Source of the DNA: Prevotella melaninogenica
GTDB lineage: Bacteria > Bacteroidota > Bacteroidia > Bacteroidales > Bacteroidaceae
Reading direction: 5' to 3'
DNA length: 64,000 nucleotides
Assembly: GCF_018127925.1 (NCBI RefSeq)
Contig: NZ_CP072348.1
Coordinates: 1,222,001-1,286,000 of the forward strand
The notes below the pieces were generated by a model. It did not search any database and was not told the DNA's origin. It saw only the letters and a program-made list of their open reading frames with translations. The position numbers and the translations under genes were made by a program. The stretch's first letter is position 1. Each line of letters begins with the position of its first letter. Shown here in pieces: positions 1,110 to 61,159 of the stretch.

Positions 1110-1260
1110 CTTTTCTATAGTTTGAGCCGATAAATCGCGTGGTTTCATAAGAACTTCACACATAAACAATTCTTTAGAAGCCTACCTTATAATTCACAAT
1201 GAGGCAAACACACCTCTTCCCAACCATCTTTATCCATTGTATTATAGCTTGTTCCATGTC

Positions 1261-1348
1261 GTGTTCTTGGTAAACACCAACTGTGCGGAGCATGAGCACC
1301 AACCGTGCGAAGCACTAACACCATACGTGCGGAGGGTTAAATACCTTA
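1261..1348 (+). repeat. 22-bp GTGC array, four units
   Basis: Four units start at 1261, 1283, 1305 and 1327, exactly 22 bp apart. Cores are GTGTTCTTGGTAAACAC, GTGCGGAGCATGAGCAC, GTGCGAAGCACTAACAC and a degenerate last unit GTGCGGAGGGTTAAATAC. Each full unit is an inverted repeat (GTGC...GCAC), and neighbouring units form a second inverted repeat (GCAC-N5-GTGC) whose centre is 11 bp away. Related arrays lie at 13656, 23228 and 46689. The rest of this spacer (about 1110-1260 and 1349-1540) shows nothing I can name. Confidence 0.85.
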
Positions 1349-6173: not shown

Positions 6174-6275
6174 ATATGCTCTTTTAGCATCTTAAAGACG
6201 CCCAATAAGCTTGCAAAAGGTGCCCTTTAGGAGCCTTACTAACGCCCTTTTGAAGTCCAATTAAGCACCTTTTGG
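6174..6275. repeat. 22-bp array, core type (also found inside the MITE pair)
   Basis: Recurring GC-containing points lie at 6179, 6201, 6223 and 6245, each 22 bp apart. The sequence (ATGCTCTTTT...AAAGACGCCC...GCAAAAGGTGCCC...AACGCCCTTTTGAAG) is about 80% identical to 57700-57800 and to the reverse strand of 43091-43190. The inverted pair CAAAAGGTGC/GCACCTTTTG flanks its second half. Here no terminal inverted repeats surround it, so the core can exist outside the larger element. The rest of the 5882-6520 spacer shows nothing further. Confidence 0.8.
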
Positions 6276-6520
6276 AAACCACTTTTACAACCCTTTGATT
6301 CTCTGATATTTACAAAAGCATCCGGAATAGTACTTTTTAGACCTAAATTAGCATTTTAACCCCTCACGATTGTAAATATATTTCAAACCATCACACAACT
6401 CACTCAACACTCTTAACACATAGCAAAAATCAAGTACACCACAAAGCGCAATTGACAAGAGGACAGAAACGTCGGCCAAAGTGTTAATATTCTAAAAATA
6501 GGGGTCGTTAACAAAATATT

Positions 6521-12374: not shown

Positions 12375-13646
12375 ATGTTATACTATATCTTCCGTTGGCT
12401 TGACCAGTTCGGTATCAGTGGTTCTCACCTTTGGGGCTACATCAGTTTCCGTTCTATCTTGGCAATGATATTAGCACTGATTATCTCTGCATGGTTCGGA
12501 GAACGCTTCATTAAATACCTCAAGAAGAAGCAGATTACAGAGGTACAACGAGATGCACAGATTGACCCATTTGGTGTCAAAAAGATTGGTGTACCATCAA
12601 TGGGTGGTATTATCATCATCGTTGCCCTCTTGATTCCTGTCGTCTTGTTAGGTAGATTACGTAATATCTATCTGCTCTTGATGATTGTCACAACCATTTG
12701 GTTGGGTTTCCTCGGTGGTATGGATGACTTCATTAAGATATTCAAGCACGACAAGGAAGGACTGAAGGGTAAATATAAAATTATCGGACAAGTAACCATC
12801 GGACTCATCGTTGGCTTAACACTTTGGGCTTCTCCTGACGTCAAAGCTAACATGAACCTTGAGGTAGCCAATCAAAATGGCAAGGAAATCGTCATCAAAC
12901 ATGAGGCTAAAGCCGAAAAGACACTGAAGACGACCATTCCATTTGTAAAATCACATAATCTTGATTATTCAGAAATTGTAGGTTTCTTAGGTAAGTACAA
13001 AACTGCTGGTGGCTGGATTCTGTTTGTCCTTATGACCATCTTCGTTGTCACGGCTGTATCTAATGGTGCAAACCTTAACGACGGAATGGATGGTATGTGT
13101 GCAGGAAACTCCGCCATCATAGGTGTCGTATTGGGTATATTAGCCTACGTAAGTAGCCATATACAATACGCAGCCTACCTCAACATTATGTACATTCCAG
13201 GCTCGGAAGAGTTAGTAGTGTTCTTCATGGCATTCATTGGAGCATTGATAGGCTTCCTTTGGTACAATGCTTATCCTGCACAAGTGTTCATGGGTGACAC
13301 GGGAAGTCTTACCATCGGAGGTATCATAGCAGTAGGTGCAATCATCATTCACAAGGAGTTGATGCTCCCTATTCTCTGTGGCGTATTCTTTGTTGAGAGC
13401 TTAAGTGTTATCGTACAGGTTTGGTACTACAAGTTAGGAAAGCGTAAAGGTGTTAAACAGCGTATCTTTAAGCGCACACCAATACATGACAACTTCCGTA
13501 CACAAGATAGCCAACTCGATCCAGAGTGTAAGTATCTCTTGAAAAAACCACATAGTGCAGTGCATGAGAGTAAGATTACACTACGCTTCATCATCGTGAC
13601 TATCATCCTCGCTGCAATGACTATCATCACACTGAAGATAAGATAA
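12375..13646 (+). CDS. mraY: phospho-MurNAc-pentapeptide transferase MraY
   Basis: Inner-membrane enzyme that transfers phospho-MurNAc-pentapeptide to undecaprenyl phosphate, forming lipid I. Catalytic signatures are D117-D118 in GGMDDFIK, N235-D-GMDGM in the second loop, and FMGDTGSLTIGG further on. About ten membrane segments are visible. At 423 aa it is longer than the E. coli protein because of a loop around residues 155-195 (NLEVANQNGKEIVIKHEAKA) that is common in Bacteroidetes. An unusually long spacer (178 bp) with a 22-bp repeat array separates it from murD. Confidence 0.97.
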   Translation: MLYYIFRWLDQFGISGSHLWGYISFRSILAMILALIISAWFGERFIKYLKKKQITEVQRDAQIDPFGVKKIGVPSMGGIIIIVALLIPVVLLGRLRNIYLLLMIVTTIWLGFLGGMDDFIKIFKHDKEGLKGKYKIIGQVTIGLIVGLTLWASPDVKANMNLEVANQNGKEIVIKHEAKAEKTLKTTIPFVKSHNLDYSEIVGFLGKYKTAGGWILFVLMTIFVVTAVSNGANLNDGMDGMCAGNSAIIGVVLGILAYVSSHIQYAAYLNIMYIPGSEELVVFFMAFIGALIGFLWYNAYPAQVFMGDTGSLTIGGIIAVGAIIIHKELMLPILCGVFFVESLSVIVQVWYYKLGKRKGVKQRIFKRTPIHDNFRTQDSQLDPECKYLLKKPHSAVHESKITLRFIIVTIILAAMTIITLKIR

Positions 13647-13655
13647 GCACGAGGC

Positions 13656-13721
13656 GTGCGAGGCGTTAGCACGATATGTGCGGAGCATTCGCACAATTGG
13701 TGTTCATACGAAACACCACAC
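13656..13721 (+). repeat. 22-bp GTGC array inside the dcw operon
   Basis: Units begin at 13656, 13678 and 13700, exactly 22 bp apart. Cores are GTGCGAGGCGTTAGCAC, GTGCGGAGCATTCGCAC and GTGTTCATACGAAACAC. It is the same family as 1261-1348. The array starts 10 bases after the mraY stop and would be transcribed within the dcw message. Confidence 0.85.
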
Positions 13722-15156: not shown

Positions 15157-15172
15157 GAAAAGACTTATCTGG

Positions 15173-15232
15173 CTAATTGGGCTAATAAGACTAAATTGGG
15201 CCTATAAGGCTAATTGGGCTAATAATCCCATA
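15173..15232. repeat. GGCTAATTGGGCTAATAA repeats
   Basis: GGCTAATTGGGCTAATAA occurs twice with a degenerate copy between. The GGCTAAT unit recurs at 9-base steps within each block. A closely similar array lies at 61102-61153 between sufD and sufS. Confidence 0.75.
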
Positions 15233-23120: not shown

Positions 23121-23227
23121 GATTCATCAACCTTCTTCATTATAAGAAGAATAACCCCTTCCCTTTGGGGAAAAGGCAGCCTTTCTATTAGTCTCTTTAC
23201 CCTTATATGCATTCTTATTAAGCCTCC

Positions 23228-23275
23228 GCACCACATGTGTTAGGCGTCCGCACATAACGTGCTAAGGCTTCGCAC
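23228..23275 (-). repeat. 22-bp GTGC array
   Basis: GCAC points at 23228, 23250 and 23272 are 22 bp apart. Read on the minus strand the cores are GTGCGAAGCCTTAGCAC and GTGCGGACGCCTAACAC, then a degenerate GTGCGGAGGCTTAAT. Same family as 1261-1348. It lies between the convergent ftsZ and the 23302 gene. Confidence 0.85.
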
Positions 23276-23301
23276 ACTCGTAGAAGAAGGCAAGACTTCT
23301 C

Positions 23302-23793: not shown

Positions 23794-23888
23794 TCTACCT
23801 TATTTACAATGTTATATCCATGGATTGTATCGTAAACTCGCCACAAATACGCTCCTCACATAGTCCTAAATATTAATCAATCCAAAGC

Positions 23889-24110
23889 AAACACCCAAAG
23901 ACAAACATGTTCCCTCAGATGCGCACTTCATCAACACCTAACAATAAACACCCAACACCCAAAGACAAACATGTTCCTTCGAATGCGCACTTTTTCAACA
24001 CCTAACATTCAACACCCAATGCTCAAGCCAACATTTACACATCATCAACACCCAAAATTCAACACCTAACACCCAGCATTTAACACCCAACACCCAACAT
24101 TGGGACAAGA
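23889..24110. repeat. 64-bp tandem duplication and AACACCC repeats
   Basis: ACACCCAAAGACAAACATGT occurs at 23891 and 23955, and ACACCTAAC at 23934 and 23998, both 64 bp apart, so two tandem copies are present. Downstream the sequence breaks into AACACCC/AACACCT units, ending with consecutive 7-base AACACCC units at about 24083-24100. These last units encode the C-terminus of the transporter at 24080-25126. A related patch (GGTGTTGGGTG, reverse sense) is inserted in the MITE at 43336-43375. Confidence 0.75.
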
Positions 24111-25216: not shown

Positions 25217-25306
25217 GAATTATTATCATGAAAGAAAGAAATTATTTTCATGAAGATAAATATTTCTTTTCATGAAGAAAAATATTTTTTTTCATGAAAA
25301 TAATTC
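25217..25306. repeat. 22-bp TCATGA array, four dyads
   Basis: TCATGA occurs at 25226, 25248, 25270 and 25292, each exactly 22 bp apart. Between the last three, the second dyad AAATATTT (or a close variant) sits halfway, giving alternating palindromes about every 11 bp. The block is bounded by GAATTATTATCATGAAA on the left and its near-inverse TTTCATGAAAATAATTC on the right. A two-unit relative lies at 40541-40600. Confidence 0.9.
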
Positions 25307-35330: not shown

Positions 35331-35459
35331 AGCATTTCAAATAGCAAAAGATACACAATAAAAAAGTTTATCAAATATCCTGTTTAAAGAAAAGAAATAA
35401 GGGCATGTCCAAATGCAAATTGACAACTATCAAACAATAAGTAGGATTCTACTAAAAGC

Positions 35460-35504
35460 AAAGACCATTTCTTTACTCGAAAATGAGTATTGAAATGGTC
35501 TTTT
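35460..35504 (+). terminator. terminator after gyrB
   Basis: AAGACCATTTC (35461-35471) pairs with GAAATGGTCTT (35492-35502), with an inner TACTC/GAGTA stem, and ends in T. It is about 130 bases past the stop, so the message has a long 3' end. Confidence 0.85.
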
Positions 35505-35682
35505 CATATTGGATTATTTTAACCTGTAAGATTATCAAAAAGGTATTTGCATTTTAATCCACCCTCCCGCAGTAAGGCTACCTCCCCCACCTTTGAAAAA
35601 ACAAGAGTTAATCCCCTCTCCCTATCCTTGGAGAATCTTTTAGGGGTTAATCTCCCCTCCCATAGGGGTATCTCGCATTTCA

Positions 35683-35708
35683 CTCCCCTCTCCTCTTGGA
35701 GAGGGGCT
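35683..35708 (-). terminator. GC-rich hairpin after the HU-like gene
   Basis: CCCCTCTCC (35685-35693) and GGAGAGGGG (35698-35706) form a perfect 9-bp stem around four bases, just after the stop of the minus-strand HU-like gene. The surrounding 35560-35720 stretch is a mosaic of CCCCTCTCC/GGAGAGGGG words. No T run follows, so terminator function is a guess. Confidence 0.5.
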
Positions 35709-35722
35709 GGGGGTGAGGCCTT

Positions 35723-36178
35723 TTATCCCGCCTCTGGTCCTCCACCCTCTTTCTTTTTCTTTTCTTCCTTTCCTTCTTTAGTCTTCCTCCTCGCTGGATT
35801 ATCCACATCCACTTCAATCTTCTTCAACGCTTCCGTGACGGCAGACTTCCAGCGAACAAGGACACGGGGACGCTTCAAGGATTCTGCGGTGACATCTTTC
35901 TCGTTATCTACCATCTTTGACGGTATCGTAGTGCGGAACGAAAACAAGTCGCCAAGGTCTAGCGAACCACCAAGGCTAATCACCTCAATAGCAATATTAC
36001 GCAGGGTGATGATCACGTTTCTCACATCTCCCTCACTCAACGAGGTTTCGCGAACAATACGGTTAACAAGCCAATCGGCTGAAAACTTCATCGGGGCTTT
36101 TGGCACGGCATTAAAGGCTTTCTGACCTTTCTTTGGACCAATCTTGTGTGTGGTCTCAACTACCTTAAATGAAATCAT
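35723..36178 (-). CDS. HU-like DNA-binding protein (Bacteroidetes HU-HIG type)
   Basis: A 151-aa protein of the HU/IHF superfamily in the form common in Bacteroidetes. It starts MISFKVVETTHKIGPKKGQK and has the core FSADWLVNRIVRETSLSEGDV followed by LRNIAIEVISLGGSLDLGDLFSF, which matches the dimer and beta-arm base of HU. It ends in a lysine/glutamate-rich tail with GGGPEAG. It probably binds DNA as a nucleoid protein; many paralogues occur per genome. It is 200 bases downstream of the fimbrillin gene on the same strand, separated by repeats and a hairpin. Confidence 0.85.
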   Translation of the reverse strand: MISFKVVETTHKIGPKKGQKAFNAVPKAPMKFSADWLVNRIVRETSLSEGDVRNVIITLRNIAIEVISLGGSLDLGDLFSFRTTIPSKMVDNEKDVTAESLKRPRVLVRWKSAVTEALKKIEVDVDNPARRKTKEGKEEKKKKEGGGPEAG

Positions 36179-36208
36179 AAAATAATAAATTTAAGTTTTA
36201 ATAAATAT

Positions 36209-36234
36209 GGAGCCTCGCCTTTCAGCAAGGCTCC
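36209..36234 (-). terminator. hairpin between fimbrillin and HU-like genes
   Basis: GGAGCCT (36209-36215) and AGGCTCC (36228-36234) form a perfect 7-bp stem. On the minus strand it is followed by an A/T-rich stretch without a clean T run, so it may be a weak terminator of the fimbrillin transcript or part of the HU-like leader. Confidence 0.5.
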
Positions 36235-36259
36235 GTTAACTATATTTTCTTTCGTTTTC

Positions 36260-36343
36260 TCTTCCTTATATCAAGACCGTCCTCTTCATTATATGAAGAC
36301 CGTCGCCTTGATATAAGGAAGACAACCGCCTTCATATAATGAA
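36260..36343. repeat. 22/23-bp TATA-dyad array
   Basis: Four dyads follow each other: CTTCCTTATATCAAG, CTTCATTATATGAAG, CTTGATATAAGGAAG and CTTCATATAATGAA. TATA centres are at about 36267, 36290, 36312 and 36335 (steps 23, 22, 23). The first and third are inverse copies of each other. The first three are separated by GACCGTC or GACAACC spacers, the former itself a dyad. The array lies 40-120 bases beyond the fimbrillin stop. Confidence 0.85.
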
Positions 36344-36380
36344 TACAAATGCCTTAATATTTAGAACAGATGATACTCAC

Positions 36381-38141
36381 TTAATAATGAATAAATGGTC
36401 TTACACTAGCAGATGAGTTCTTCGGCAATAGACGAAAATCGCAGGTTGATCCAATAAAGCCTATTGTTGCCTGGTTATAATCTGAATGATCTTTACATTC
36501 TGTCGAAGTCCAATAAGGCCCCATAGGGGCTGTTCCACCTACATCAGTAAATGCCTTATTAAATCTTGTCATATCCATTGATGGGAAAGGAACATTAGTT
36601 CCCGTAAAACCTGTTGCTGGAGCATTTGACGGGATAAGATAAGTATAATCTGCAGGATAATGCATACTACCTTCCCCACGAGCAGGAAGTTTTCCTAAAC
36701 TAACCCCCATATACAAGAAATCTCGTACGTTAGGAACATAGACAGAACCAGGTATCCACAATGTCAGCCCTTGTGACGCAAGATAATTACGATAGTTATC
36801 TAATGCCTGCTGGACTGGAGAAGAACTCTCTGGTGCACAAGTACCACTGCTGTAATTTGTAAATAGATCGGTGTAATTCACAGCAGGATTAGAAGACTGT
36901 TGAGCAGTAGACGATGCCCAATTTATATTACCACTCCACCAAGAATTAGGCTTTACATCTTGAAGTGCAACTGCTGTATGATTATACGGATCAACAACTA
37001 CACCTACCGGAGTCTTCCCAGGATTCTTATCACGTGGTCCGGCTGTTCCATCACTATATAGATACATATAGCCCATTATGAGCTTTACGACGATCGTGTA
37101 TCTCTTATTTGCCTCTACTAGCTTATGAGTAGGTACAGTTATCGTCTTTCCTACTATACTCCTTCCATAAATCTCACCAAAAGTAAACGTGAGTTTTAAA
37201 TCTGCACAATCTGTTCCAGGAAGCCAGTAATCTGAATATGGGGTATTACTATATATCGGAACATTTGTTCCTGGGCTTGCATAACCACCTTGACCGCAAG
37301 TAAGCGTATGAGATTTTGAGATCTGTTCCTTTGCTGGATATGTATAAGAATCTGCTGAAAAATCATACACCATCGTCTTTAGGATTTTGTTAGGATCTGT
37401 CTCAACATTACATTGAAGACGTTCTGCAGGATTAGCAGCTTCACCATAAGCGGAGGTAGCCCACCCCTGTTGAACATTATGAGTTATTACACCTTTAAGG
37501 CCACAATTAACGAGATCAAACTTTAAAGACACTAATGCCCCTGCATGCTTCATCTCAAAAGCTACATATTGCTTAGGGTCTTGATTAATGACAACGCTAC
37601 GCTTTATGGTAAAGCGCGCAGTACCTGCATCGGTTCGATTGACAGTGAACTGTGTACCATTTGCCGTTACCTTATCATTGAAACAGACAAAATCGTATGT
37701 GCCATGAGGGAGAGAAATAGATTCTAGCTCTCCTGCATCAGGAGTAAAGGTTGAACCATTGAAAGTTCCCTTAGTCTGTCCTTTCAATACACCGCCTTGG
37801 TAAGCCTGGATAGTGTAATGAGTTGGAGTATAAATAGCACGTGTTTTAGCCTTAGCTTCTTCTTTGTGGGTTGTATCAGGAACTAAACTGACTTCTGCCT
37901 GCCAACCATCACCCAAGTCTTGCAATTCTGTCTGTGGTTGGGTAGCAGCACGTGTGCCAGATACTTCCTCTGCAGGCTCAAAGTCTTTCTCACTGATTTT
38001 GAACGAGACACGCTCCATACCATCCTGTGGTGTCACACCATTTGCTAAGTCCTCGCTATTACTACAACCTGAAAAGGCAAAGCCAGTAACAATGCCAAGC
38101 ACAAGCGTAGAAAGCGATGCTTTAAAAATATTATTCTTCAT
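36381..38141 (-). CDS. fimbrillin-family lipoprotein
   Basis: A 586-aa lipoprotein: signal peptide followed by the lipobox FAFSGC with C26 as the acylated residue. The N-terminal half resembles Mfa-like/fimbrillin domains (ERVSFKISEKDF; GTRAATQPQTELQDL; an immunoglobulin-like stretch around AFEMKHAGALVSLKFDLVN near residue 195). The C-terminal ~170 residues carry the pattern of Fibrobacter-type paralogous domains found in many Bacteroidetes surface proteins, ending YWTSTECKD...ASVRPFIHY. It is probably a surface or fimbrial-tip protein exported as a lipoprotein. A 55-residue ORF, a long leader and a divergent AraC gene lie upstream. Confidence 0.85.
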   Translation of the reverse strand: MKNNIFKASLSTLVLGIVTGFAFSGCSNSEDLANGVTPQDGMERVSFKISEKDFEPAEEVSGTRAATQPQTELQDLGDGWQAEVSLVPDTTHKEEAKAKTRAIYTPTHYTIQAYQGGVLKGQTKGTFNGSTFTPDAGELESISLPHGTYDFVCFNDKVTANGTQFTVNRTDAGTARFTIKRSVVINQDPKQYVAFEMKHAGALVSLKFDLVNCGLKGVITHNVQQGWATSAYGEAANPAERLQCNVETDPNKILKTMVYDFSADSYTYPAKEQISKSHTLTCGQGGYASPGTNVPIYSNTPYSDYWLPGTDCADLKLTFTFGEIYGRSIVGKTITVPTHKLVEANKRYTIVVKLIMGYMYLYSDGTAGPRDKNPGKTPVGVVVDPYNHTAVALQDVKPNSWWSGNINWASSTAQQSSNPAVNYTDLFTNYSSGTCAPESSSPVQQALDNYRNYLASQGLTLWIPGSVYVPNVRDFLYMGVSLGKLPARGEGSMHYPADYTYLIPSNAPATGFTGTNVPFPSMDMTRFNKAFTDVGGTAPMGPYWTSTECKDHSDYNQATIGFIGSTCDFRLLPKNSSASVRPFIHY

Positions 38142-38177
38142 TGTTTTGTCTTTTAATCGTTAATTACTCGTTAATTA

Positions 38178-38345
38178 CTAAAATTCAATTGTTCCACCAT
38201 CAAGTTCTCCACCGTCTTCCCAGTCTGTCTCGGTTGTGTGTGGAGCATCTGGGTATACCGATGTACAAATAAAGTTTTCGAGTTCAAGTTTATGCACTTT
38301 ACACTCGGGACGTTCATAATCCCTTTTCTGTTTCGTTTTTCTCAT
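38178..38345 (-). CDS. small 55-residue protein upstream of fimbrillin
   Basis: A complete ORF with the sequence MRKTKQKRDYERPECKVHKL at the N-terminus, a middle ELENFICTSVYPD, and an acidic tail WEDGGELDGGTIEF. The stop is 36 bases before the fimbrillin ATG on the same strand. Bacteroidetes operons for surface proteins often contain such short peptides with a basic N-terminus and a Y-x-x-P-E-(C/I) motif; their job is unknown. No signal peptide. Length and composition look coding, but it has not been confirmed by comparison. Confidence 0.7.
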   Translation of the reverse strand: MRKTKQKRDYERPECKVHKLELENFICTSVYPDAPHTTETDWEDGGELDGGTIEF

Positions 38346-38410
38346 TGCTTTAATTAATTAAAATAGTTTTTTTTTCTTATTTTGTGTAAATAGAGCTTGC
38401 AAAAGGACAT

Positions 38411-38449
38411 AAAAAAGCGAACAAAGGAAACTCCTTGAAGTCCTTTGTT
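38411..38449 (-). terminator. terminator-like hairpin in the fimbrillin leader (possible attenuator)
   Basis: On the minus strand AACAAAGGA (38449-38441) pairs with TCCTTTGTT (38428-38420) and is followed by CGC and a run of T (38416-38411). It lies between the promoter at 38651-38682 and the 55-residue ORF, so it would end transcription early or release a ~230-nt RNA. Confidence 0.65.
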
Positions 38450-38453
38450 TACA

Positions 38454-38650
38454 GGGGTTACGGCACGCTTCGCGCGCGCGTATGAGAGAAGAAAAAATGT
38501 CTTAGTGACGCTAGGTGCGCATTGTGTGTGTGTGTGTTAGCAAATTATTTGGATTGACCAAAGATAAAGTGCAAAAAGATGCAAAGAACTTGATAATTCT
38601 TTGCAGTACGTCATTGCCTTGATATGTCATTGCTAATTTTTTCACGGCGG
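38454..38650 (-). other. long leader of the fimbrillin operon with simple sequence repeats
   Basis: The roughly 300-base leader between the promoter and the 55-residue ORF contains (CG)5 at 38471-38480, (TG)7 at 38523-38536 and, closer to the ORF, nine T at 38367-38375. A 39-residue ORF at 38511-38630 (minus strand) runs through the TG repeat; I do not claim it as a gene. Confidence 0.6.
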
Positions 38651-38682
38651 CAAAGGTAAGAAGATTAAATTAAAGGAGCAAA
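38651..38682 (-). promoter_or_regulatory. promoter of the fimbrillin operon
   Basis: Minus-strand TTTG (38682-38679), 20 bases, TACCTTTG (38658-38651): an exact consensus. The start of transcription is expected near 38645. Confidence 0.85.
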
Positions 38683-38836
38683 GAAAAACAAGAGAAAATA
38701 ATTCAAGTGATATATTTTCTTCTATATTTCCATCCGCCTTTTCAAAGTAATACAACACAAATGAAGTATAACAGCGAGGCGGTGTAGAAAGATTGTATTT
38801 CTCCCTCCAAAAGAATCTGAATAGGAAATAAATATG

Positions 38837-40451: not shown

Positions 40452-40540
40452 CTTTCTTAACGCTAAATTATTTCATTTTCAACTATGTTTTGCTGTTCAC
40501 CCAACAGCATCTTCTCACTAAAACGGAACTCCCTTCCAAT

Positions 40541-40600
40541 TTATTTTCATGAAAAGAAATATTTTTCTTCATGAAAATAAATATTTCTTTACGCATAAAT
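40541..40600. repeat. 22-bp TCATGA array, two dyads plus a degenerate third
   Basis: TCATGA occurs at 40547 and 40569, 22 bp apart, with a degenerate third position at 40591 (ACGCAT). AAATATTT-like dyads lie between and after. The right edge ATAAATAATTCC resembles the edge of the 25217-25306 array. Confidence 0.8.
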
Positions 40601-40712
40601 AATTCCCTCCTAACCTTATTTTAAGGCTTTAATTAGGTAAACAAACTATCTTAGTCCTATAAGACTTATAAGGCAAATACGCCCTACACACCTTTAAACA
40701 AGCAATTCGTTT

Positions 40713-46688: not shown

Positions 46689-46776
46689 CCGATGTATTGA
46701 TGCTCCGCACATGTAGTGCTAAGCGTCAACACAAAATGTGTTAAGGGTCAACACCAAATGTGCTAAGGGTTAATAG
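46689..46776 (-). repeat. 22-bp GTGC/GTGT array, four units
   Basis: Points GCAC at 46707, ACAC at 46729 and ACAC at 46751 are 22 bp apart, with one more unit at the right edge. On the minus strand the cores are CTATTAACCCTTAGCAC, GTGTTGACCCTTAACAC, GTGTTGACGCTTAGCAC and GTGCGGAGCATCAATAC. It lies between two of the TonB-domain genes. Confidence 0.85.
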
Positions 46777-46835
46777 CGATATTGATAACGATAAAACGGC
46801 TTACAAAAGATGATGACAACATGAGCAATTTGGGC

Positions 46836-61101: not shown

Positions 61102-61153
61102 GGCTAATTGGGCTAATAAGGCTAATAAGGCTAATAAGCCCAATTAGCCTAAT
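61102..61153. repeat. 9-bp GGCTAAT repeats
   Basis: GGCTAAT begins at 61102, 61111, 61120 and 61129, each 9 bp apart, followed by the inverse AGCCCAATTAGCC. Same word as in 15173-15232. It fills the sufD-sufS gap. Confidence 0.8.
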
Positions 61154-61159
61154 ACCAAA

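What the first reader, a model, noticed from the sequence alone, without database searches (positions are those of the whole stretch)
1261..1348. Strict 22-bp array with alternating dyads (GTGC family), four loci
Four arrays (1261-1348, 13656-13721, 23228-23275, 46689-46776) use units whose start points are exactly 22 bp apart. Cores have the form GTGCGGAGCNTNAGCAC. Inside a unit GTGC pairs with GCAC; across the join GCAC-N5-GTGC makes a second dyad whose centre is 11 bp away. The sequence drifts but the 22-bp step does not. This suggests selection on spacing, for example a row of dimer-binding sites on one face of DNA, or stacked hairpins in RNA. They are not CRISPR (no spacers) and not single REP units. 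The fixed step is shared with unrelated arrays in the same window (see the TCATGA, TATA and core findings), which is the most unusual pattern here.
Basis: seen in the sequence. Interest (0 to 1): 0.75.

Follow-up and report, generated by a model that had tools for sequence, protein, structure and literature searches.

The report
22-bp dyad arrays beside HU-like genes
Hundreds of short, mirror-symmetric DNA sites lie between the genes of this bacterium in rows with a fixed 22-base step, and similar rows lie in front of most genes of its unusually large family of DNA-packaging-like (HU-type) proteins, which suggests that such proteins line up on the rows to organise or control the chromosome.

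Summary
In 1.264 Mb of this genome, noncoding DNA holds 166 tandem arrays at lag 22; other lags from 12 to 45 give 0-35, except 44 with 73. GTGC arrays are half-sites GTGYKR alternating in orientation every 11 bp. Half-sites within a unit do not covary, so double-stranded dyads are likelier than RNA hairpins. More than ten unrelated unit sequences share a 22- or 23-bp step. The key lead is HU-HIG (PF18291), with 65 matches here: 49 of 65 have such an array upstream, against 61 of 725 other genes. Array types follow protein clades, and the genes typed as 23-bp form one clade. TCATGA arrays precede their HU-HIG gene in five Prevotella genomes and four ruminant-derived MAGs, and are also dispersed. 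Best reading: rows of dimer sites for HU-HIG proteins, autoregulatory at their own genes and, for some types, dispersed. The protein of the GTGC arrays was not found: none of 65 HU-HIG upstream regions holds a GTGC unit, so that assignment is inference. No binding was tested.

The parts
1252..1348 (.). GTGC-family array (finding), about 3 units, 22-bp step; two extra units at the orthologous place in G148
13646..13717 (.). GTGC-family array between a glycosyltransferase-4-type gene and a Mur-ligase-type gene, about 3 units
23218..23276 (.). GTGC-family array after ftsZ, in a convergent intergenic region, about 3 units
46692..46795 (.). GTGC-family array, about 4 units; one unit fewer in G148
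25218..25303 (.). TCATGA-family (A) array, 4 units at 22 bp; decayed in G162, 1 bp shorter in G148
40539..40602 (.). TCATGA-family (A) array, about 3 units; 44 bp shorter in G162, 22 bp longer in G148
6222..6284 (.). Part of a dispersed B element (GCCCTTTT units at 22 bp)
36259..36360 (.). 23-bp array with ATATCAAGG/CTTGATAT dyads directly upstream of the HU-HIG gene
35723..36178 (-). HU-HIG protein (PF18291; TIGR01201), 151 aa, one of 65 PF18291 matches in the genome
35341..38816 (.). Stretch present here where G162 and G148 have about 157 bp of other sequence; carries ORF 36381-38141 (-), the 23-bp array and the HU-HIG gene

Best explanation
The arrays are double-stranded DNA sites, not RNA. 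Each 22-bp unit is one dyad for one protein dimer; dimers sit side by side on the same face, two helical turns apart, and probably bind cooperatively as a short row of 3-6 dimers. The proteins of this kind are HU-HIG members: an HU body, in the TCATGA group followed by a stretch that I read as a winged helix. In this genome most HU-HIG genes carry an array of their own type upstream (autoregulation inferred), and types A and D also occupy dispersed intergenic sites. The GTGC arrays of the finding are taken to be the dispersed sites of such an HU-type protein, not yet identified. Shown by sequence: geometry, dispersal, lack of covariation, HU-HIG linkage, clade-specific types. Inferred: binding, cooperativity, autoregulation, chromosome role, and the assignment of GTGC.
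For: Genome-wide lag-22 excess. Half-sites alternate every 11 bp; no pairing covariation. Of 55 array pairs compared with G162 and G148, 40 have no gap in the array, 8 a net change of one or two whole units, 7 other gaps. 49 of 65 PF18291 matches have an upstream 22- or 23-bp array (44 of 57; 5 of 8) against 61 of 725 other genes; at score >=18 it is 34 of the 57. 33 of 44 of these arrays have a significant dyad. Array types follow protein clades, and the 11 genes typed as 23-bp form one clade, support 0.96. The five A-type genes examined at 90 percent identity or more (G000, G148, G649, G140, G705) all have the A array upstream; in G140 it is the only strong A array. Four MAGs have TCATGA arrays directly upstream of HU-HIG genes. 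Type D is upstream of its gene in G000, G148, G649 and G016.
Against: None of the 65 own HU-HIG upstream regions holds a GTGC unit, and no B binder was found. G162 has many A arrays (49 first-look candidates) but no A-type gene (best match 29 percent). Many HU-HIG genes elsewhere lack an upstream 22- or 23-bp array: six of seven examined in G420 and the one in G461, two of three in G016 and two of four in G140, two of two in G703; in G649 two have an array only downstream; in G162 none of four has a clear one (one lag 24, one weak lag 23, two none). PF18291 also rings on ordinary HU (9 of 14 control genomes); three of the 65 are of that sort. The clade-type match is partly expected because whole cassettes were copied. 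Array substitution rates equal those of flanks. No structure could be predicted.
Confidence: 0.6

Rival explanations
1. The dispersed arrays (A, B, C) are non-autonomous mobile or BIME-like repeats that spread between genes; the 22-bp step reflects internal structure of the element or slippage, and the HU-HIG link is a separate operator system with a similar step.
For: B is a dispersed repeat with conserved flanks (75 sites in the sample). B and C lie between convergent genes more often than random noncoding positions (17 of 52 and 19 of 54 against 0.21) and further from start codons. Length changes come mostly in units. Arrays as a whole are not more conserved than flanks. P. gingivalis has a 23-nt minisatellite inside a MITE (PMC4596501).
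Against: Many unrelated sequences share one step; half-sites mix freely; types A and D are both dispersed and upstream of HU-HIG genes. No Y1_Tnp match in this genome.
Confidence: 0.25
2. The GTGC arrays bind another, non-HU transcriptional or nucleoid protein that also assembles at two-turn steps.
For: None of 65 own HU-HIG upstream regions has a GTGC unit. G461, with GTGC-type arrays, has only three PF18291 matches and no array near the HU-HIG gene examined. Two genomes with a single GTGC array (G042, G657) have no HU-HIG gene in the 8-10 kb read around it.
Against: Same geometry and similar copy number and intergenic placement as the HU-HIG-linked types A and D; no other candidate protein was found.
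Confidence: 0.35
3. RNA hairpin arrays acting in transcripts.
For: GTGC and GCAC can pair within a unit; C and B arrays lie between convergent genes more often than random positions.
Against: No covariation of half-site types in unit or junction; several families are near-perfect palindromes without a loop; no Rfam match in the window other than a tRNA.
Confidence: 0.05

Closest known systems
HU-HIG proteins (PF18291; NCBIfam TIGR01201 HU_rel)
   Same: The window's 35723-36178 protein matches both profiles; the TCATGA-array proteins match PF18291 over its cut-off but TIGR01201 only below its cut-off.
   Different: No paper in the listings of the searches made on this family links it to tandem DNA arrays; most subscription papers are not held, and a family paper that I recall could not be read.
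BrickBuilt, 23-nt minisatellite in a MITE of Porphyromonas gingivalis (PMC4596501; abstract and part 1 of 2 of the section on homology to MITEs read)
   Same: Tandem intergenic units of nearly this length in a related genus, dispersed in one genome.
   Different: One unit sequence inside a MITE with terminal inverted repeats; no series of unrelated sequences and no HU-HIG link in what I read.
PINSR, 188-bp repeat of Prevotella intermedia/nigrescens (PMC4755523; passages seen)
   Same: Dispersed intergenic repeat of Prevotella in 177-184 copies; B here is also a dispersed intergenic repeat with conserved flanks.
   Different: Its consensus is in a figure not held, so identity with B is not testable; reported by PCR only in four species of that group.
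REP/BIME elements (PMC2817692, listing and start of abstract only)
   Same: Intergenic, dispersed, regularly spaced palindromes in alternating orientation.
   Different: No Y1_Tnp (RAYT-type) match in this genome; unit geometry constant over unrelated sequences.
Plasmid iterons and dispersed Noc, SlmA and parS sites (recalled only)
   Same: Rows of sites at about two helical turns (iterons); dispersed palindromes bound by chromosome-organising proteins.
   Different: As recalled, iterons sit at an origin and the others are not in such rows; here rows of several types are dispersed.

Membership tests
HU-HIG-linked arrays (as found here): GTGC family C | 22- or 23-bp tandem dyads | tested here: met
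HU-HIG-linked arrays (as found here): GTGC family C | array of the same type upstream of an HU-HIG gene | tested here: not met
   0 of 65 own upstream regions (400-450 bp) hold GTGY-N9-RCAC; none printed for the relatives' genes examined
HU-HIG-linked arrays: TCATGA family A | array of the same type upstream of an HU-HIG gene | tested here: met
   gene missing in G162
HU-HIG-linked arrays: window 23-bp array | array upstream of an HU-HIG gene and shared by its clade | tested here: met
CRISPR | repeats separated by unique spacers | tested here: not met
   units abut at 22 bp
REP/BIME | cognate REP-associated tyrosine transposase (Y1_Tnp) in the genome | tested here: not met
   no PF01797 match in G000 at E <= 0.001
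REP/BIME | hairpin-forming palindromes with compensatory pairing | tested here: not met
   for the YKR positions of family C
BrickBuilt-type MITE minisatellite | terminal inverted repeats of an IS family around the array | not tested
   no search for terminal repeats was made for A and C; B flanks were looked at by eye only
PINSR | 188-bp consensus sequence | not testable with these tools
   consensus is in a figure not held
Structured RNA family | match to an Rfam model | tested here: not met
   one match in the window, a tRNA

The most novel reading that the evidence does not exclude
Bacteroidales carry a chromatin-like code: an expanding family of HU-type proteins, each clade with its own palindrome but the same two-turn step, that assembles on dispersed intergenic rows. 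One type (TCATGA) is concentrated on one chromosome around its skew-inferred origin, so the rows may mark chromosome domains; site sequences turn over between species while the geometry stays.
Probability: 0.3. Interest if true: 0.9.

Novelty: new variant of a known kind. Interest (0 to 1): 0.75.

Why it matters
If right, it links a large, little-studied family of HU-type proteins to concrete DNA targets, and gives ready-made pairs of protein and site for testing how sequence specificity evolves while assembly geometry is kept. It would also give a function to hundreds of intergenic repeats in Prevotella and relatives that would otherwise be filed as minisatellites.

Tried and rejected
CRISPR, REP units and RNA hairpins: see the membership table. 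Iteron control of a replicon: a Rep_3 gene lies at C2:701 kb, but sampled GC skew puts that near the terminus, so the link was dropped. A common gene next to GTGC arrays: G042, G657 and G560, which each show one GTGC place (one strand or both), have no HU-HIG gene in the stretches read; Pfam matches of the neighbours in L267 and L265 gave no DNA-binding protein. The two HU-sized proteins and the 455-aa HU-domain protein of this genome have no array upstream. Purifying selection on whole arrays: not seen; the planned test on the ten most informative columns was not significant (C p 0.15, A p 0.09, B p 0.24), and the contrast of GTG/CAC columns, 2 of 228 against 38 of 566 elsewhere, was chosen after seeing the table. 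Origin bias of family A: p 1e-4 against uniform placement, but 0.055 in the sample against noncoding positions.

Caveats: gene models are longest-ORF calls of my own scripts. The 35 family-A places on C2 were read by me (the listing was cut). In one search a loose motif put three H-type genes under F and one gene of the F clade under M; one weak 23-bp hit (C2:68542, score 13) lies outside the 23-bp clade. In one search two own upstream regions (C2:263872, C2:475652) show one chance-like pair of half-site-like hexamers 22 bp apart, without a GTGC unit. G488 and G705 give identical places and are counted once. In one search the reversed control pattern hit in two of the genomes listed (1/1 and 0/2).

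Full report
1. Observation. The four GTGC arrays exist as described. In the window's 10,954 noncoding bases lag 22 has self-identity 0.322 against a mean of 0.286 over lags 5-60, 4.45 SD. The window's 36 intergenic segments hold 7 lag-22 arrays (score >=12), against a mean of 0.02 and a maximum of 1 in 100 dinucleotide shuffles.

2. Genome scale. The window lies in G000:C2, a 3.36-Mb genome in two contigs. In 400 kb outside the window lag 22 stands 8.6 MAD above the median, lag 44 5.2, lag 66 2.8. In 61 stretches (1.264 Mb, window included) there are 166 noncoding arrays at lag 22 after removal of simple repeats; other lags from 12 to 45 give 0-35, except 44 with 73. They fall into families: B 57, C (GTGC) 57, A (TCATGA) 23, F 5, D 3, E 3, G 3, and 15 others.

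3. Anatomy. In family C, GTGYKR repeats at 22 bp (95 cases; 21: 6; 23: 1), and the inverse half-site follows at 11 bp in both directions (101 and 116 cases). Adjacent units differ at a mean of 7.4 of 16 other positions, so the spacing is kept while the sequence drifts. Half-site types within a unit match no more often than expected (17 of 101 against 19.4; junction 21 of 116 against 26.4), which speaks for double-stranded dyads and against paired hairpins. Family-level dyads exceed all 500 column shuffles for A, C, E, F and G, not for B or D.

4. Evolution. Against G162 and G148 (ftsZ 97 and 96 percent identical), 55 array pairs could be aligned: 40 have no gap in the array, 8 a net change of one or two whole units, and 7 other gaps. 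The first array of the finding has two more units in G148, and the array at 46.7 kb one fewer. The 7 others are all in family A: one place where both relatives carry a B element instead (two pairs), one decayed array in G162, and 1-bp gaps in three arrays (four pairs). Substitution in arrays equals that in flanks. By column, the planned test is not significant in any of three families; GTG and CAC columns show 2 of 228 against 38 of 566 elsewhere, chosen post hoc.

5. Distribution. A GTGC row pattern is found in 13 of 399 Bacteroidaceae genomes searched, this one included, with 143/140 hits here, 157/160 in G162 and 137/146 in G649; the control pattern gives 0 in these three. G420 and G461 mostly carry GTGCA-type arms, G630 GTGCC. 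Another genome of the genus (G016) has 7 lag-22 arrays of other sequence in 100 kb, and 7 at lag 44, against 0-1 at other lags; G140 has 4 against 0-3. Four genomes of other families in the order have 0, 1, 1 and 2. In the sets compared the core TCATGA is constant and the arms differ by genome. Outside those arrays, the same loci show lag 22 only weakly (2.8 MAD, below lags 8 and 21).

6. HU-HIG link. PF18291 gives 65 matches here, against 3-17 in the other eight genomes of the genus searched (one of them P. jejuni by record title), 6 in G703 and 1-3 in four other families; the family also rings in 9 of 14 control genomes, being related to ordinary HU. Of 57 own genes first read, 44 have a best array of lag 22 or 23 within 400 bp upstream (36 and 8; one more at lag 24), 34 of them with score 18 or more; of the remaining 8, five have one, and the three without are two HU-sized proteins and a 455-aa HU-domain protein. 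Among 725 other genes 61 do. 33 of 44 such arrays have a significant dyad. More than ten unit sequences occur, largely one per protein clade; mean identity within a type is 0.81 and between types 0.28, partly because cassettes were copied whole. The 11 genes typed as 23-bp form one clade, support 0.96, with no other gene in it. In the window the HU-HIG gene 35723-36178 has its 23-bp array at 36259-36360.

7. Conservation of pairs. The A-type gene (HU domain plus a C-terminal stretch that I read as a winged helix) has the TCATGA array upstream in G000, G148, G649, G140 and G705, five of five examined at 90 percent identity or more; a second gene of G140 has a TACATGTA array, and distant relatives in Hoylesella marshii and Hallella have other 22-bp arrays, while that of Phocaeicola (L394) has none. 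HU-HIG genes lie directly downstream of TCATGA arrays in L126, L138, L089 and L117, from four ruminant-derived MAGs; 7 of 142 loci scanned held an HU-HIG match, in L119 with the array on the 3' side. Type D precedes its gene in G000, G148, G649 and G016. No upstream 22- or 23-bp array was seen for six of seven genes examined in G420, one of one in G461, two of three in G016, two of four in G140, two of two in G703; in G649 two genes have an array only downstream; in G162 none of four has a clear one, and G162, with many A arrays, lacks the A-type gene.

8. Reading. The simplest account is one dimer per 22-bp unit, side by side, two turns apart, as for a cooperative row. HU-HIG proteins are the best candidates found, because they are tied to arrays of many sequences with one geometry. 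For the GTGC arrays no HU-HIG gene with a matching array was found, so their protein is open. Family A has about 35 places on C2 against four on C1, with a mean position on C2 of 1.525 Mb, where sampled GC skew changes sign as at an origin; against uniform placement p is 1e-4, against sampled noncoding positions 0.055.

9. Known things. Ten searches of the held library listed no report of HU-HIG-linked arrays; most subscription papers are not held. BrickBuilt (23-nt) and PINSR are the nearest printed repeats seen. I recall that G162's contig lengths equal those of Prevotella melaninogenica ATCC 25845; no call names it.

Noticed in passing
window 35341-38816: About 3.5 kb present here where G162 and G148 have about 157 bp; carries an HU-HIG gene, a 23-bp array and a 586-aa ORF without Pfam or NCBIfam match. 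PF18291 matches number 65 here against 6-12 in G162, G148 and G649.
   Followed up: partly
window about 35400-35566: Dispersed repeat of about 180 bp with ends like GAGGGTGTGTCAAAATGCAAA (here diverged); two copies in the same orientation flank the HU-HIG insertion at C2:1335 kb.
   Followed up: no
L397:6410-6740 (G042): Three lag-22 arrays of different sequence in one intergenic region.
   Followed up: no
G000 C2:534000, C2:1189464, C1:15559; L414: Palindromic TTCGCGAA repeat with 22-bp spacing; at C2:534000, C2:1189464 and in L414 it lies just downstream of an HU-HIG gene, perhaps a terminator.
   Followed up: no
window 15171-15225 and 61102-61154: Two separate tandem repeats of GGCTAAT type, period 9 or 18-19.
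   Followed up: no
window 23882-24101: CAACACC-type 7-bp repeats with a 64-bp duplication.
   Followed up: no
G000 C2:701024-701350: Rep_3 gene near the skew-inferred terminus of C2; also found in G148, G162 and G140.
   Followed up: partly
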